Shown piece by piece: positions 1,926-58,485 of a stretch of DNA of 64,000 bases. The position numbers and the translations under genes were made by a program. Source of the DNA: a virus; the IMG/VR virus record IMGVR_UViG_3300042907_001269, positions 22,908 through 86,907 of that record. One strand, written 5' to 3'. Below the pieces are notes generated by a model, which did no database searches, was not told where the DNA came from, and was given only the letters and a program-made list of their open reading frames with translations. Positions within the stretch are counted from its first letter, which is position 1. Every line of letters starts with the position of its first letter.

Positions 1926-1961
1926 TCCTTCTCTCTAAATACGGAGAGAAGGATTTTTTTT
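1926..1961 (+). promoter_or_regulatory. Terminator-like hairpin with late promoter in the loop and hidden ribosome site
   Basis: A perfect 10-base inverted repeat (1926-1935 with 1944-1953) is followed by a T-run, so it can act as a rho-independent terminator for the hli operon. The loop holds most of a late-promoter octamer CTAAATAC (1935-1942). The 3' arm contains AAGGA (1949-1953), the ribosome-binding site for the ATG at 1962. Read-through RNA would hide this site, whereas RNA started at the late promoter would lack the 5' arm. Confidence 0.7.
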
Positions 1962-2123
1962 ATGCCAAGGGGACAATTAACAAAGGATGAGATAAAGTAT
2001 CAGGTATTGAAGTTAAAGCAGAAACTTCAAAATGAGCATATCGGATATACGTCTGATCCTAAATCACTTGCCGATCAATATCTGAATATGGTTCTGGATA
2101 AGATTAATGAATATGCCCGCTGA
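1962..2123 (+). CDS. Small hypothetical protein, 53 residues
   Basis: Starts at the ATG after AAGGA and the T-run of the upstream hairpin. The protein is charged and predicted helical (TKDEIKYQVLKLKQKLQ), with no membrane span or known motif. It lies alone between the hli terminator and the psbA promoter. Expression is probably late, because the only complete route to an exposed ribosome site begins at the octamer at 1935-1942. Function unknown. Confidence 0.65.
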   Translation: MPRGQLTKDEIKYQVLKLKQKLQNEHIGYTSDPKSLADQYLNMVLDKINEYAR

Positions 2124-2167
2124 CAAAGGGTTCTATTTATACTGTGCCACTTAGGTAATTGGACCTA

Positions 2168-2196
2168 TTGACAGGATTTCCTAACAGTGTTATTAT
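2168..2196 (+). promoter_or_regulatory. psbA promoter
   Basis: TTGACA at 2168-2173, a 17-base spacer and TATTAT at 2191-2196. It lies about 160 bases upstream of psbA, leaving a long structured leader, and is one of several early-type promoters in the window with an exact 17-base spacer. Confidence 0.82.
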
Positions 2197-2202
2197 ATAT
2201 AC

Positions 2203-2359
2203 ATACACGGGTTAAGAAACGTAACAATTCTGAAACCCAGTGTCTTCTCCAACCGGGATCAAGAGAAGTAAAGCATCCCTCATACCCACGATGGAGGGTG
2301 TCGTGGGAATACTTGTAACTATTCAGTCCCCCTGAATCATACTTACCCTTTTAAAACAA
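2203..2359 (+). promoter_or_regulatory. Structured psbA 5' leader, PhotoRC-II-like candidate
   Basis: The leader can form three hairpins: CTTCTC/GAGAAG (2244-2249 with 2263-2268), CCCACGA/TCGTGGG (2285-2291 with 2301-2307) and ATTCAG/CTGAAT (2321-2326 with 2332-2337). The loop of the second contains GAGGG (2294-2298), which can pair with CCCTC (2277-2281) as a pseudoknot-like contact. No Shine-Dalgarno precedes the psbA ATG. A conserved RNA class, PhotoRC-II, is known upstream of psbA in marine cyanophages; this is a likely member, but I could not test it against the covariance model. Confidence 0.55.
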
Positions 2360-3648
2360 ATGACTGCTACAATTGCTCAACAACGTTCCACAAATACCTG
2401 GAACCAATTCTGTGAGTGGGTTACTTCCACTAACAATCGTCTGTATGTTGGTTGGTTCGGAGTCCTTATGATTCCTTGCCTACTTGCTGCTACGACTTGC
2501 TTCATTATCGCTTTCGTCGGTGCTCCTCCTGTGGACATTGACGGCATTCGTGAACCCGTTGCTGGTTCTCTAATGTACGGAAACAACATCATCTCTGGTG
2601 CCGTTGTTCCTTCTTCTAATGCTATCGGACTTCACTTCTATCCTATCTGGGAAGCTGCTTCACTTGATGAATGGCTTTATAACGGTGGACCTTTCCAACT
2701 CGTTGTATTCCACTTCCTCATCGGCATCTATGCTTATATGGGACGTGAATGGGAACTCTCTTACCGTCTAGGTATGCGTCCTTGGATCTGTGTTGCTTAT
2801 TCAGCACCTGTTGCTGCTGCTTCTGCTGTATTCCTGGTCTATCCTTTCGGTCAAGGTTCTTTCTCTGATGCAATGCCTCTGGGTATCTCTGGAACCTTCA
2901 ACTACATGCTTGTCTTCCAGGCAGAACACAATATCCTGATGCACCCCTTCCATATGCTTGGTGTTGCTGGTGTCTTCGGTGGTTCACTGTTCTCTGCGAT
3001 GCACGGTTCACTGGTGACTTCTTCACTGGTTCGTGAAACTACTGAAACTGAATCGCAGAATTATGGTTATAAGTTCGGTCAAGAAGAAGAGACCTATAAC
3101 ATCGTGGCTTGACAGAGCGGGTCACGTTAAACTGGGTGAACTGCTGGAAACCTAAGTCCTTTATGGATATGGCAATCAGCATCCAAGTCCTAGATACATC
3201 TAGGAAAGGTTCAGAGACTACCTGAGGGATACAGTTCCCTTAATAACAGGCAAGAGCGCCCAGCACCTTTAATAGGTGAAGATATAGTCCAACCCTTAAG
3301 GAAACTTTTGGACAATTGGCTCACGGTTACTTTGGACGACTCATTTTCCAATATGCTTCGTTCAATAATTCTCGTTCACTTCACTTCTTCCTCGCCGCTT
3401 GGCCCGTTGTGGGCATCTGGTTTACTGCTCTAGGCGTAAGCACTATGGCATTCAACCTCAACGGACTAAATTTCAACCAGAGTATTCTGGATAGTCAAAA
3501 CCGAGTAATTCCTACTTGGGCGGACATATTGAACAAAGCTGGGTTGGGTATGGAAGTTATGCACGAGAGAAATGCACATAATTTTCCTTTAGATTTGGCG
3601 GCAGCAGAAACAACTTCGGTTGCTCTAACTGCTCCTTCTATAGGTTGA
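2360..3648 (+). CDS. psbA: Photosystem II D1 protein, split by a group I intron (exons 2360-3109 and 3319-3648)
   Basis: Joining the exons gives a 359-residue D1, the usual length. D1 binds the reaction-centre pigments, the manganese cluster and plastoquinone QB, and phage copies replace photodamaged host D1. Key residues are present at standard numbers: Tyr161 and Asp170, His190, His198 (P680 ligand), His215 and His272 (non-haem iron), Ser264 (QB), His332, Glu333, Asp342 and Ala344 (cluster ligands and processing site). Residue 130 is Glu, the form found in high-light D1 variants. The intron follows codon 250. Without splicing, translation stops at the first intron codon (TGA, 3110-3112) and gives a 250-residue truncated product. 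No Shine-Dalgarno is visible. Confidence 0.97.
3110..3318 (+). ncRNA. Group I self-splicing intron in psbA
   Basis: The insertion interrupts psbA between codons 250 and 251. The upstream exon ends in T and the intron ends in G, as expected for group I splice sites. The conserved core strands are visible: GTTCAGAGACTA at 3209-3220 (R element) and AAGATATAGTCC at 3279-3290 (S element), which together form P7. It is 209 bases long and encodes no protein, so mobility would need an endonuclease supplied in trans. Similar psbA introns are known in other cyanophages, for example S-PM2. Confidence 0.93.
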
Positions 3649-57015: not shown

Positions 57016-57602
57016 TGTCACCTTTTGAAACTTATCAAGCATATTTGGGAATCAAGAATCATTTCACCAATCCCAAATATGATTACTTTAAATATAAAAA
57101 AACAAGAGCAACACTTACATCATTTAATAAACGCAAAGACAAATATTTTTTCGAGAAAAGTTCTCGTAAATATTCGGACAAAGAAATAGTAGATTTTTTA
57201 GTATCAAACTTTATAGTAGCAGATAATCCCCAAAGCATATGGATTGGCGAAATTATCAATTCTGGAGAAAGAAACTACCAAGAATGGATGAGAAGACAAC
57301 AGAGTTTGAGTTACTTATTCAAGGAACAATCAACAGAATTGTTCTCGGAAGTAAAATTAGAAGATGCTTTGAACTGCTCCAAAGGACATCCACCAATTCT
57401 AAAAAAATTCCTGAGCGGGAAGATTTGTATTGAAACTCTGGTAATTTATGATAGAATATTCCTGTTCGGGAAACAATTTGACAAGAAACTTCTGGACCCA
57501 ATATGGGAAACCGTAAGTTTAAAAATTAAGAAGTATACGCCATTTCTAAATATTGATGTGTTTCAGTACAAGCGAATTTTGAGGGATATTATAAATGAGT
57601 AG
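57015..57602 (+). CDS. 59: Helicase loader gp59
   Basis: A 195-residue protein with the gp59 start SPFETYQAYLGIKNHFTNPK, central DFLVSNFIVADNPQSIWIG and C-terminal PILKKFLSGKICIETLVIYD. T4 gp59 (217 residues) loads the gp41 helicase onto gp32-covered forks. Its position upstream of gp32 is as in T4, and the overlap with gp33 suggests shared early expression from 56651. Overlaps the DUF1825-like gene by eight bases. Confidence 0.88.
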   Translation: MSPFETYQAYLGIKNHFTNPKYDYFKYKKTRATLTSFNKRKDKYFFEKSSRKYSDKEIVDFLVSNFIVADNPQSIWIGEIINSGERNYQEWMRRQQSLSYLFKEQSTELFSEVKLEDALNCSKGHPPILKKFLSGKICIETLVIYDRIFLFGKQFDKKLLDPIWETVSLKIKKYTPFLNIDVFQYKRILRDIINE

Positions 57603-57924
57603 TTTTTTTGATTCTGAACTTATTCAGGAAGAACTAAAAGAAATTAATGAACTTCAGGAGTTTATATACAATAGTATTTTAACTTTTGGTATGATGCCCC
57701 GAGAAGACAAACTGGAACATATTGAAAAAATGACACGACTGCTTGAGAAGCAGAGAATTATGTATACCAGACTTTCTCTTTCAGATGACCCTCAGGCAAT
57801 TGAGATGAAAGAGAATCTGAGAAAGTCCGTTGCTCTGATGGGATTTCCGCCAGAGACTGATATGAGTATTCTTTTCAGTAGTATGACAAAAACCATTGAG
57901 TCGCTCAAAAAGTATCTTGACTGA
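57595..57924 (+). CDS. DUF1825-like protein, 109 residues
   Basis: MSSFFDSELIQEELKEINEL and the later REDKLEHIEKMTRLLEKQRI match a helical family (DUF1825) of cyanobacteria and their phages. Function unknown; conservation in host and phage suggests a shared cellular target. It ends in the promoter that serves the next HNH gene. It replaces T4 genes that lie between 59 and 32. Confidence 0.72.
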   Translation: MSSFFDSELIQEELKEINELQEFIYNSILTFGMMPREDKLEHIEKMTRLLEKQRIMYTRLSLSDDPQAIEMKENLRKSVALMGFPPETDMSILFSSMTKTIESLKKYLD

Positions 57925-57945
57925 TGAGCGATTTTTTGCTATAAT
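57917..57945 (+). promoter_or_regulatory. Early-type promoter upstream of the HNH homing endonuclease
   Basis: TTGACT (57917-57922), touching the stop TGA; 17-base spacer; TATAAT (57940-57945). The hairpin that follows begins at the last base of the -10, so early transcripts would start inside or near it. Confidence 0.72.
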
Positions 57946-57983
57946 TATGTCTTTTACTAAATAATAATAAGCAAAAGACATAA
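57945..57983 (+). promoter_or_regulatory. Sequestering hairpin with a late promoter in its loop
   Basis: TTATGTCTTTT (57945-57955) pairs perfectly with AAAAGACATAA (57973-57983), ending one base before the ATG at 57985; AAAAGA is the nearest ribosome-site-like sequence. CTAAATAA (57957-57964) in the loop resembles the late octamer. Confidence 0.65.
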
Positions 57984-57984
57984 A

Positions 57985-58485
57985 ATGTTTAACAAATTAA
58001 AAGAATTTTCTAATTACCTTATAGAAGATACTGGTAAAGTATTTTCCATATCTAAAAAAGATTATATAAATTTTTATGAAAATAATTATGGATATAATTT
58101 TGTTTCTATGAAAAATGATAATAATAAATGGGTCTCTGAATATGTGCATAGATTAGTTGCTAAATCTTTTTTAGAAAATCCAAATAATTATCCAAATGTT
58201 CTCCATTTGGACGATAATCCAAAAAATAATAATGTTAATAATTTAAAATGGGGAACACAATCCGAAAATATTTTATTGTGTTCTTTAAATGATAGAATGG
58301 CAAGACAAAATCAATATACTAAAAATCCAATAATTTGGACGCTGAAGGATCCTACGGGGAAAATTTATACTACAACAAATTTAAAGAAATTTTGTATTGA
58401 AAATAATTTAGATCAAGGTGCTATGACTTCTACCCTAAGAGGGAAGTACGGTAGAAAACAACATAAAGGTTGGACGAGGGCTTGA
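57985..58485 (+). CDS. HNH homing endonuclease (NUMOD4/HNH_3 type)
   Basis: A 166-residue protein. The N-terminus (NYLIEDTGKVFSISKKDYIN) fits a NUMOD4-like module. HRLVAKSFLENPNNYPNVLH and LDDNPKNNNVNNLKWGTQSE form the HNH_3 active site (His, Asn and Asn/His residues). The C-terminus (IWTLKDPTGKIYTTTNLKKF) is a DNA-binding module of the NUMOD1-like type, with LRGKYGRKQHKGWT at the end. Inserted between DUF1825 and gp32, it is probably a mobile intruder. Its DNA is more AT-rich than gp32. Confidence 0.92.
   Translation: MFNKLKEFSNYLIEDTGKVFSISKKDYINFYENNYGYNFVSMKNDNNKWVSEYVHRLVAKSFLENPNNYPNVLHLDDNPKNNNVNNLKWGTQSENILLCSLNDRMARQNQYTKNPIIWTLKDPTGKIYTTTNLKKFCIENNLDQGAMTSTLRGKYGRKQHKGWTRA

What the first reader, a model, noticed from the sequence alone, without database searches (positions are those of the whole stretch)
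1926..57985. Late promoters paired with ribosome-site hairpins before four genes, three of them homing-type nucleases
Perfect inverted repeats lie directly before the starts at 1962, 6581, 54205 and 57985: stems of 10, 7, 11 and 11 base pairs. In each case an octamer like TATAAATA or CTAAATAC lies in the loop (1935, 54171, 57957) or just upstream of the 5' arm (6553). A late transcript would start inside the structure, lose the 5' arm and free the ribosome site or start codon. In T4 the free-standing and intron nucleases I-TevI, SegB and MobE are controlled by hairpins of this kind. Finding it on three unrelated nuclease genes (HNH, GIY-YIG, HNH_3) and one small gene suggests a recurrent switch for mobile genes in cyanophages. 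The biochemical effect is inferred.
Basis: partly seen in the sequence, partly recalled or inferred. Interest (0 to 1): 0.82.

Follow-up and report, generated by a model that had tools for sequence, protein, structure and literature searches.

The report
Late-gene switches on phage nuclease genes
Viruses of cyanobacteria place the same kind of RNA hairpin, wrapped around a late-infection promoter, in front of many unrelated mobile nuclease genes, which would keep these genes silent until late in infection and in one common form may also make a small RNA that pairs with the nuclease message.

Summary
The four inverted repeats are real and conserved, but they are three different things.

(1) 54205 (NUMOD3/GIY-YIG type): one copy of a widespread cassette. 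It holds a late promoter P1, a 5' hairpin starting at the predicted +1, a terminator-like hairpin, a second late promoter P2, and a 3' arm starting near the predicted +1 of P2 that pairs back into the first hairpin's loop. It matches 64 of 79 homologous loci, covaries strongly, occurs up to six times per genome, and precedes unrelated nuclease types. Predicted ribosome-site accessibility is 0.17 in upstream-started RNA and 0.74 in P2 RNA.

(2) 57985 (HNH_3): a simple I-TevI-like hairpin around a late promoter, in three distinct leaders. A sigma-70-like promoter would start inside its 5' arm.

(3) 1962 (53-aa gene, not a nuclease): an intrinsic terminator with the late promoter in its loop, in 46 of 49 distinct leaders.

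The 6581 leader (HNH_5) is conserved in sequence, almost without compensating changes.

In S-SRM01, strong stems enclose late promoters before 10 of 15 nuclease genes and 4 of 74 others. T4 has the general switch. The two-promoter cassette with a predicted antisense RNA appears to be a new variant. All this is sequence inference; no transcripts were measured.

The parts
54107..54114 (+). Late promoter P1 (CCTAAATA), left part of the class-B cassette; predicted +1 at 54120
   Evidence: TAAATA present in 35 of 36 homologous leaders that have P2, followed by exactly 5 nt and a purine in 34 of those 35; in 7 of 9 informative sites the empty site lacks it, but the window's own thy1 site is one of the two exceptions
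54120..54170 (+). Predicted RNA from P1: 5' hairpin (54120-54148) starting at +1, then a terminator-like hairpin (54149-54169) with a weak U-tract in this copy
   Evidence: -20.5 kcal/mol, z -3.36; 5' hairpin at +1/+2 in 61 of 64 cassettes vs 60 of 320 shuffled
54126..54136 (+). 5' arm AGTTGACTGCA of the ribosome-site-masking stem, lying in the loop region of the 5' hairpin
54171..54178 (+). Late promoter P2 TATAAATA; predicted +1 at 54184
54183..54193 (+). 3' arm TGCAGTCAACT; begins one base before the predicted +1 and abuts the AAAGAG ribosome site (54194-54199)
54205..54939 (+). NUMOD3 / GIY-YIG-type homing endonuclease gene (244 aa)
   Evidence: PF07460 E 3.7e-29; phrog_314 homing endonuclease E 7.4e-23; GIY-YIG motif read by eye (no match to PF01541)
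57917..57945 (+). Sigma-70-like promoter TTGACT-17-TATAAT of the gp32 site; would start inside the 5' arm of the hairpin
   Evidence: similar promoters are seen in the empty sites
57945..57983 (+). Class-A hairpin TTATGTCTTTT / AAAAGACATAA with late promoter ACTAAATA (57956-57963) in its loop; predicted +1 at 57969
   Evidence: a stem is kept in the two other distinct leaders (L087, L090)
57985..58485 (+). HNH_3 nuclease gene (166 aa), inserted before gp32
   Evidence: PF13392; phrog_59 E 1.9e-27
58482..58510 (+). Sigma-70-like promoter TTGACA-17-TATAAT at the 3' end of the HNH_3 gene, before gp32
   Evidence: 12 of 12 matches
1924..1961 (+). Class-C element: intrinsic terminator (stem 1924-1935/1944-1955, then T) with late promoter CTAAATA (1935-1941) in the loop; predicted +1 at 1947; AAGGA (1949-1953) in the 3' arm
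   Evidence: 46 of 49 distinct homologous leaders, 38 different stems
1962..2123 (+). 53-aa conserved cyanophage gene before psbA (phrog_566, unknown function), not a nuclease
6553..6586 (+). Late promoter AATAAATA (6553-6560) and hairpin AATCATAAGT (6560-6569)/ACTTATGGTT (6577-6586) that holds the start codon; predicted +1 at 6566
   Evidence: conserved in sequence, almost no compensating changes
6581..6952 (+). HNH_5 nuclease gene (123 aa); 288 stretches encoding relatives in IMG/VR, best 80 kept

Best explanation
Cyanophage nuclease genes carry portable leaders that keep them untranslated except from their own inner late promoter. In the commonest form found here (class B, window 54107-54204) RNA that enters from upstream, including RNA from the leader's first late promoter P1, either stops at the inner terminator-like hairpin or, if it runs on, folds so that the first hairpin's loop sequence pairs with the region just before the start codon and hides the ribosome site. 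RNA that starts at the second late promoter P2 begins at about the first base of the 3' arm, lacks the partner strand and is translatable. Simple class-A hairpins (57985) use the same principle without P1 and the terminator. The class-C element (1962) separates transcription units: the late promoter sits in a terminator's loop, so upstream RNA stops there while late RNA starts inside the 3' arm and escapes. Shown here: the sequences, covariation, promoter spacing, association with nucleases, and presence of the leader in inserts. Inferred: that both late promoters fire, the start sites, and the effects on termination and translation.
For: Covariation on 35 distinct leaders: 84.9% of cells paired vs 65.8% shuffled, 129 doubly changed cells vs 42.3, 0 of 500 shuffles as high on these two; sliding the partner by 1-3 columns drops pairing to 40-55%. 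G-U pairs in both helices point to RNA rather than DNA. A covariance model matches 64 of 79 loci encoding relatives of the 54205 protein (33 of the 64 are in the training set and 8 more are copies of the window's own gene), 17 of 22 whole records searched (records chosen because they held one of my loci) and 3 of 6 named cyanophages including marine S-B68 and S-N03. In the 37 cassettes read with their genes the downstream product looks nuclease-like by eye; representatives hit NUMOD3, endonuclease VII, phrog_314 and phrog_655. Predicted unpaired probability of the window -15 to -6: 0.17 in long RNA, 0.74 in P2 RNA; 0.61 when the first 28 nt are shuffled, observed lower in 63 of 64. Nuclease association in S-SRM01: 10 of 15 vs 4 of 74, p=4.6e-7; with library- or GenBank-labelled nucleases only, 8 of 13 vs 6 of 76, p=3.9e-5. 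T4 precedent read as passages.
Against: No RNA data. The start-site rule (octamer at -13 to -6) is T4 knowledge carried over. The window copy's own U-tract is weak and the terminator scan does not call it, though 60 of 64 cassettes have at least 4 T in the 8 nt after the hairpin. The start codon itself is not less accessible in long RNA (0.49 vs 0.42 in late RNA); only the ribosome site is. 15 of 79 related loci lack a match: 4 of these (L017-L020) carry another leader type, 1 (L049) has no upstream sequence, and 10 show no match. At 57985 a sigma-70-like promoter would start inside the 5' arm. Five of 15 S-SRM01 nucleases with a late promoter have no strong stem, and one of the proteins behind a cassette has only a weak nuclease hit (L326, phrog_1891 E 0.0012).
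Confidence: 0.65

Rival explanations
1. The class-B leader also makes a separate small RNA. Late promoter P1 gives a 50-70-nt RNA (5' hairpin, terminator) whose hairpin loop is antisense to the first 10-14 nt of the P2 message; it acts in trans, or on its own message, to limit nuclease translation late in infection, as plasmid or IS10-type antisense RNAs do. This adds to the best explanation rather than excluding it.
For: P1 is present in 35 of 36 homology-found leaders with P2, at exactly 5 nt before a purine in 34 of the 35, although the masking stem alone does not need it, and it usually came with the insert (7 of 9 sites). The predicted RNA's 5' hairpin starts at +1/+2 in 61 of 64 (60 of 320 shuffled) with changing pairs. 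Within a search range of -4 to +8 the 3' arm starts at -3 to 0 of the predicted message start in all 46 distinct stems, at -1 in 28, while simple class-A hairpins range from about -5 to +8. Median cognate pairing -21.5 vs about -8 kcal/mol non-cognate. S-B68's inner hairpin is a UUCG hairpin followed by six T.
Against: No RNA detected. The same complementarity serves the cis stem. A purine at +1 is common anyway (249 of 331 TAAATA sites). No sign that copies in one genome avoid cross-pairing more than copies in different genomes (12 of 84 vs 89 of 786 pairs at -13 kcal/mol or stronger; Mann-Whitney on energies p=0.58), and G011 holds two copies with the same stem.
Confidence: 0.4
2. The repeats are ordinary intrinsic terminators of upstream genes; the TAAATA matches and the masking of the start are by-products.
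For: True in large part for 1962, called terminator-like with T5+ after the stem in 46 of 49 leaders. Many class-B inner hairpins have GAAA or UUCG loops and a T-rich tail.
Against: Does not explain the outer stems, their placement at the predicted late start, or the enrichment before nucleases.
Confidence: 0.12
3. The repeats are DNA sites: operators where the nuclease represses its own late promoter (as I-TevI does), homing sites, or insertion ends.
For: The stems flank or overlap the promoter; I-TevI has such an operator.
Against: The same architecture stands before unrelated nucleases with freely changing stem sequence, and G-U pairs are tolerated.
Confidence: 0.08
4. P1 is simply the resident late promoter of the insertion site, and the element inserts at its +1.
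For: Resident TAAATA is present at two sites (thy1 site of the window/L010 vs L358; L311 vs L335/L356).
Against: Seven of nine informative empty sites lack TAAATA in the stretch displayed (L002, L013, L035, L042, L044, L080, L329).
Confidence: 0.1

Closest known systems
T4 I-TevI / I-TevII / I-TevIII, segB and Aeh1 mobE leaders (hairpin masking the ribosome site, late promoter inside)
   Same: Mobile nuclease gene; stem encloses a late promoter; late RNA lacks the 5' arm; ribosome site masked on upstream-started RNA (PMC2988022 passages).
   Different: Class B adds an upstream late promoter, a 5' hairpin competing for the same strand, and a terminator-like hairpin; the 3' arm is tied to the predicted +1; one architecture is shared by unrelated nuclease types. 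Class A at 57985 is essentially the same as the T4 type.
T4 genes e, soc and 49 (RNA helix over the start region, relieved by late promoters)
   Same: Same principle for non-mobile late genes (PMC3014915 passages). S-SRM01 'endonuclease VII' beside the late sigma factor also has an 11-bp hairpin around TATAAATA.
   Different: No second-promoter-plus-terminator cassette described in the passages read; not mobile genes.
Antisense RNA control of IS10 (RNA-OUT) and plasmid copy-number systems (recalled)
   Same: A short RNA with a loop complementary to the 5' end of the mobile element's message would limit its expression.
   Different: Here the putative RNA is encoded on the same strand just upstream, from a phage late promoter; not demonstrated.
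CfrI antisense RNA and the psbA hairpin of cyanophage S-PM2
   Same: Regulatory RNA and a late-sigma motif near psbA and a homing endonuclease (PMC2984593 passage; PMC5931967 section 6).
   Different: CfrI runs antisense to the endonuclease gene and psbA; the 36-bp repeat is in the psbA leader, not described as a terminator with the promoter in its loop before the 53-aa gene.

Membership tests
T4-type late-unmasked nuclease leader | Downstream gene is a homing-type nuclease | tested here: met
   54205 NUMOD3/phrog_314, 57985 HNH_3, 6581 HNH_5; not met for 1962
T4-type late-unmasked nuclease leader | Late promoter inside the stem-loop so that late RNA loses the 5' arm | tested here: met
   54205 and 57985 by sequence; not fully met at 6581, where late RNA keeps 4 of 7 core pairs
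T4-type late-unmasked nuclease leader | Stem masks the ribosome site on long RNA and it is free on late RNA | tested here: met
   By prediction only: 0.17 vs 0.74 unpaired, class B; at 57985 I saw no clear ribosome site by eye
T4-type late-unmasked nuclease leader | Mapped late 5' end and measured translational repression | not testable with these tools
   no RNA or expression data
Intrinsic terminator (1962 element) | G+C-containing stem followed by a T-tract | tested here: met
   46 of 49 distinct leaders followed by T5+
Antisense small RNA | Own promoter, terminator and complementarity to the target start region | tested here: met
   By sequence in the class-B set; the window copy has a weak T-tract
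Antisense small RNA | A discrete RNA exists and acts on the message | not testable with these tools
   needs RNA-seq or northern blots
Known Rfam RNA family | Match to a described family | tested here: not met
   only two matches up to E 1 at 54050-54260, both minus strand and far below gathering scores; none at gathering level at any of the four leaders

The most novel reading that the evidence does not exclude
Cyanophage homing nucleases of unrelated families share one portable control module that encodes a late antisense RNA: P1 makes a 50-70-nt terminated RNA whose hairpin loop is complementary to the exact 5' end of the P2 nuclease message, so each mobile gene travels with its own specific antisense brake on top of a late-only translation switch, with up to six such pairs per phage genome.
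Probability: 0.38. Interest if true: 0.78.

Novelty: new variant of a known kind. Interest (0 to 1): 0.64.

Why it matters
It would show that late-only control of mobile nucleases is a general, portable solution in a major phage family rather than a T4 peculiarity, and that nucleases of unrelated origin have come to share one leader. If the P1 RNA exists, mobile endonucleases carry their own antisense regulators, giving many natural sequence-divergent antisense/target pairs to test. The covariance model also points to nuclease genes that annotation misses, for example GenBank's 'translation initiation factor 2' and 'hypothetical protein' in S-SRM01.

Tried and rejected
One common mechanism for all four sites was rejected: 1962 is a terminator-promoter overlap before a non-nuclease gene, and 6581 lacks compensating changes. 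The idea that P1 is the resident promoter of the insertion site came from near-identical copies differing just upstream of +1; empty sites argue against it at 7 of 9 sites (two further pairings, L071 vs L042 and L312 vs L052, aligned too poorly and were dropped). Selection for non-crossing stems within a genome was tested on 30 cassettes of nine genomes and not found. Rfam families: none. Labelling nucleases by four Pfam families over whole records was too incomplete for the test; GenBank names plus Pfam/PHROGs hits were used instead. MAFFT does not keep all stems in register, so the pairing is likely understated. Doron et al. 2016 (Syn9 start sites, recalled) is not held.

Errors corrected: the first contingency table missed two nucleases because annotated and predicted starts differ by more than 45 nt; one search replaces it. 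The T-tract count had a programming slip; one search replaces it. One search counted 50 leaders with 47 positive, but the window's leader was already among them; one search gives 49 distinct, hence 46 of 49.

Rows dropped: the 64-cassette set holds only cassettes where the script found both promoters; L017, L304 and L322 (no P1), L027 and L054 (P2 outside my distance limit, though matched by the model) and exact duplicates were left out. In the homology-found set 38 loci were tested: 36 had P2, and 35 of those had P1. Of 89 S-SRM01 genes with a late promoter only 17 were scanned against protein libraries; the rest were labelled from GenBank names or the family searches, and GenBank annotation was not displayed for 1-5627 and 217128-240842, so unrecognised nucleases may hide among the 'others'. 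Of the proteins behind the 37 cassettes, five were read in full and three of these scanned; one more (L303) had no Pfam hit though the same gene hits phrog_655.

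
Full report
What the window is. The window is positions 22908-86907 of an 86,907-base IMG/VR virus record, a T4-like cyanophage. The nearest annotated relative found in the phage collection is Synechococcus phage S-SRM01 (Kyanoviridae). The window holds psbA with a group I intron and a PhotoRC-II RNA, and thy1 and gp32 genes.

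Observation. The four repeats and octamers are as reported. Folded as RNA, the leaders that start upstream are far more stable than those that start at the predicted late start: -36.8 vs -1.9 kcal/mol at 54205, -9.9 vs -1.9 at 57985, -20.3 vs -1.1 at 1962, -8.4 vs -0.3 at 6581; z-scores of the long forms are -5.2, -3.6, -4.9 and -3.6. The late start is placed by the T4 rule (octamer at -13 to -6, start six bases after its last A), which is recalled. The cyanophage late motif NATAAATA is documented for S-PM2 (PMC2984593, passage).

Is it more than chance? In the window, S-SRM01 and three IMG/VR records, 309 genes have TAAATA 14-75 bases before the start. Stems enclosing the hexamer with score >=26 occur in 25, against 0.7 expected in dinucleotide shuffles; >=23 in 36 against 3.4. 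Of those 36 (listed), 27 are nuclease-like by library hit or by eye from resemblance to scanned relatives. Three are the 53-aa gene, two have no library hit, two encode a protein that matches a DNA-binding HTH family (one of the two scanned), and two are large genes of unknown function (one scanned). They include a perfect 20-bp stem before an endonuclease VII-type gene of S-SRM01. In S-SRM01, of 89 genes with such a promoter, 10 of 15 nuclease genes and 4 of 74 others have score >=20 (p=4.6e-7); counting only the 13 labelled by GenBank or protein libraries, 8 of 13 vs 6 of 76 (p=3.9e-5). The labels are incomplete (see Tried and rejected).

Class B, the 54205 cassette. I collected 79 IMG/VR loci encoding relatives of the 54205 protein (the best 80 of 91 were kept). 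Most of their leaders share one architecture with very different sequences: P1 (TAAATA), 5 nt, purine, a hairpin, a terminator-like hairpin, often with a GAAA or UUCG loop and T-rich tail, P2 (TATAAATA-like), 5 nt, purine, a 3' arm pairing with the first hairpin's loop, a ribosome site (AAGAG-like in many), and the start. Of 38 leaders tested, 36 have P2 and 35 of those have P1, with exactly 5 nt and a purine after it in 34; a purine there is common at late motifs anyway (249 of 331). On 35 distinct leaders 84.9% of cells pair (65.8% shuffled), 129 cells are changed on both sides (42.3 shuffled), and sliding the partner strand by 1-3 columns reduces pairing to 40-55%. A covariance model matches 64 of the 79 loci; 33 of these trained it and 8 more are copies of the window's own gene. 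Of the 15 without a match, L017-L020 carry a different leader, L049 has no upstream sequence, and ten show no match.

Distribution. Searching 22 whole records that hold my loci, 17 have matches: six in S-SRM01, five in G018, four in G004 and G005. Three of six named cyanophages have it, including marine S-B68 and S-N03. The 37 cassettes read with their genes precede several nuclease types (by eye): NUMOD3/GIY-YIG, a GIY-YIG-like family matching phrog_314, a family matching phrog_655 (homing endonuclease) and an endonuclease VII relative. One (L326) has only a weak HNH hit (E 0.0012). In S-N03 the gene is HNH-like by eye. Within a genome the stems differ, except two identical ones in G011.

How class B would work. 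RNA starting at P1 or further upstream can pair the first hairpin's loop with the region before the start: mean unpaired probability of positions -15 to -6 is 0.17 in long RNA and 0.74 in P2 RNA. The region -15 to +3 is less accessible in the long form in 64 of 64. The start codon alone is not (0.49 vs 0.42). Shuffling the first 28 nt of the long RNA raises the value to 0.61. Sixty of 64 cassettes have at least four T in the eight bases after the terminator-like hairpin, but the window copy has a weak tail and is not called by the scan.

Why P1 matters. A T4-type switch needs only P2. Yet P1 is kept at exact spacing, and the RNA it would make starts with the first or second base of a hairpin: 61 of 64, against 60 of 320 with the first 27 nt shuffled, with changing pairs at positions +1 to +6; its first base is a purine in 62 of 64. 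In all 46 distinct stems the 3' arm begins at -3 to 0 relative to the predicted message start (28 at -1; search range -4 to +8), while class-A stems begin anywhere from about -5 to +8. This is what an antisense RNA matched to the message's 5' end would look like. Median cognate pairing is -21.5 kcal/mol and non-cognate about -8, but copies in one genome avoid each other no more than copies in different genomes. I therefore keep the antisense reading as a serious, unproven addition (0.38-0.40).

Movement. For nine insertion sites another phage without the insert was available. At seven (L002, L013, L035, L042, L044, L080, L329) the stretch displayed from the empty site has no TAAATA; at two (the thy1 site of the window and L010; L311) it has one. 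So P1 usually belongs to the insert. In L035 the insert appears to begin at TAAATA itself.

Class A, 57985. A hairpin with the late promoter in its loop is kept in three distinct leaders (window type, L087, L090) with altered arms (by eye). The gene lies in the gp32 site behind a promoter-like TTGACT-17-TATAAT, and a TTGACA-17-TATAAT follows it before gp32. The first of these would start inside the 5' arm, so RNA from it would lack the full hairpin. This is a point against strict late-only control; the hairpin would act on RNA read through from upstream genes.

Class C, 1962. The tool calls the repeat terminator-like. In 46 of 49 distinct leaders of this 53-aa gene the hexamer (or a close variant) sits in such a stem followed by five or more T, with 38 different stems. 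The predicted late start lies in the 3' arm, so late RNA escapes termination and, in the window, carries AAGGA eight bases before the start. The gene is not a nuclease. A late-sigma motif and a 36-bp repeat upstream of psbA are published for S-PM2d (PMC5931967, section 6 read); I take that to be a different element.

6581. The HNH_5 gene is common (288 stretches encoding relatives, best 80 kept), and its leader, beginning at the late promoter, is conserved across different neighbouring sequence. In 37 distinct leaders, read with a fixed seven-base loop, the pairs are mostly kept, changes are almost all one-sided (two doubly changed cells), and single pairs are broken in up to six leaders. The late RNA keeps four weak pairs (-0.3 kcal/mol).

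Comparison. The T4 precedents were read as passages: I-TevI, I-TevII, I-TevIII, segB and mobE (PMC2988022); e, soc, 49 and I-TevI (PMC3014915, which also says that no trans-acting small RNA has been functionally characterised from T4). Searches for cyanophage leaders of this kind (open-access library only, capped lists) listed no paper that by title or start of abstract describes the two-promoter cassette. Beyond the listings I saw passages of PMC3037559, PMC2984593, PMC9964418, PMC2988022, PMC3014915 and PMC5931967, and one section of PMC5931967. No Rfam family matches.

Verdict. The class-B cassette is the interesting one and goes beyond the T4 precedent.

Noticed in passing
window 3649-3735: The endonuclease-like gene after psbA (3718, phrog_681) follows a terminator-like hairpin whose T-tract runs straight into TATAAATA; S-SRM01 has the same arrangement before its endonuclease VII-like gene.
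   Followed up: partly
window 52538-52658: Stretch 94-96% identical to S-CREM1 (annotated riboswitch) and S-PM2, although these phages otherwise match the window poorly; no Rfam hit at gathering score.
   Followed up: no
L017 1380-1500; S-SRM01 77550-77663; G005 and G002 homologues: Another leader type: GGGCAGCAA...TTGCGTAAGTCCC hairpin with the antisense arm in its loop, then TATAAATA and the 3' arm; possibly the same logic with a single hairpin. Two of the genes behind it have no PHROGs hit.
   Followed up: partly
L186 2235-3082: A class-B leader and a classic GIY-YIG-type gene lie inside a speD-like gene; the nuclease frame ends with a stretch resembling the end of SpeD, as if a duplicated gene end replaced the lost one (by eye).
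   Followed up: no
S-SRM01 142278-142761: The endonuclease VII gene beside the late sigma factor has an 11-bp hairpin around TATAAATA, resembling the control of T4 gene 49.
   Followed up: no
S-SRM01 62515 (and B23, Sf-CH5): NUMOD3/GIY-YIG-type genes are annotated in GenBank as 'translation initiation factor 2', apparently in error.
   Followed up: no
L013 / L043 / L324 insertion site: The insert is flanked by a near-repeat of about 20 bases of the target and carries TATTTA...TAAATA, possibly two divergent late promoters.
   Followed up: no
G005 200339 and G002 64166 (script coordinates on the minus strand): A 14-bp perfect hairpin around CCTAAATA precedes a gene whose product begins MCSAIVLSTDKHNYRKVAQQHYGLTDEQ; the G005 copy matches an HTH DNA-binding PHROG (E 5e-6), not a nuclease.
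   Followed up: partly
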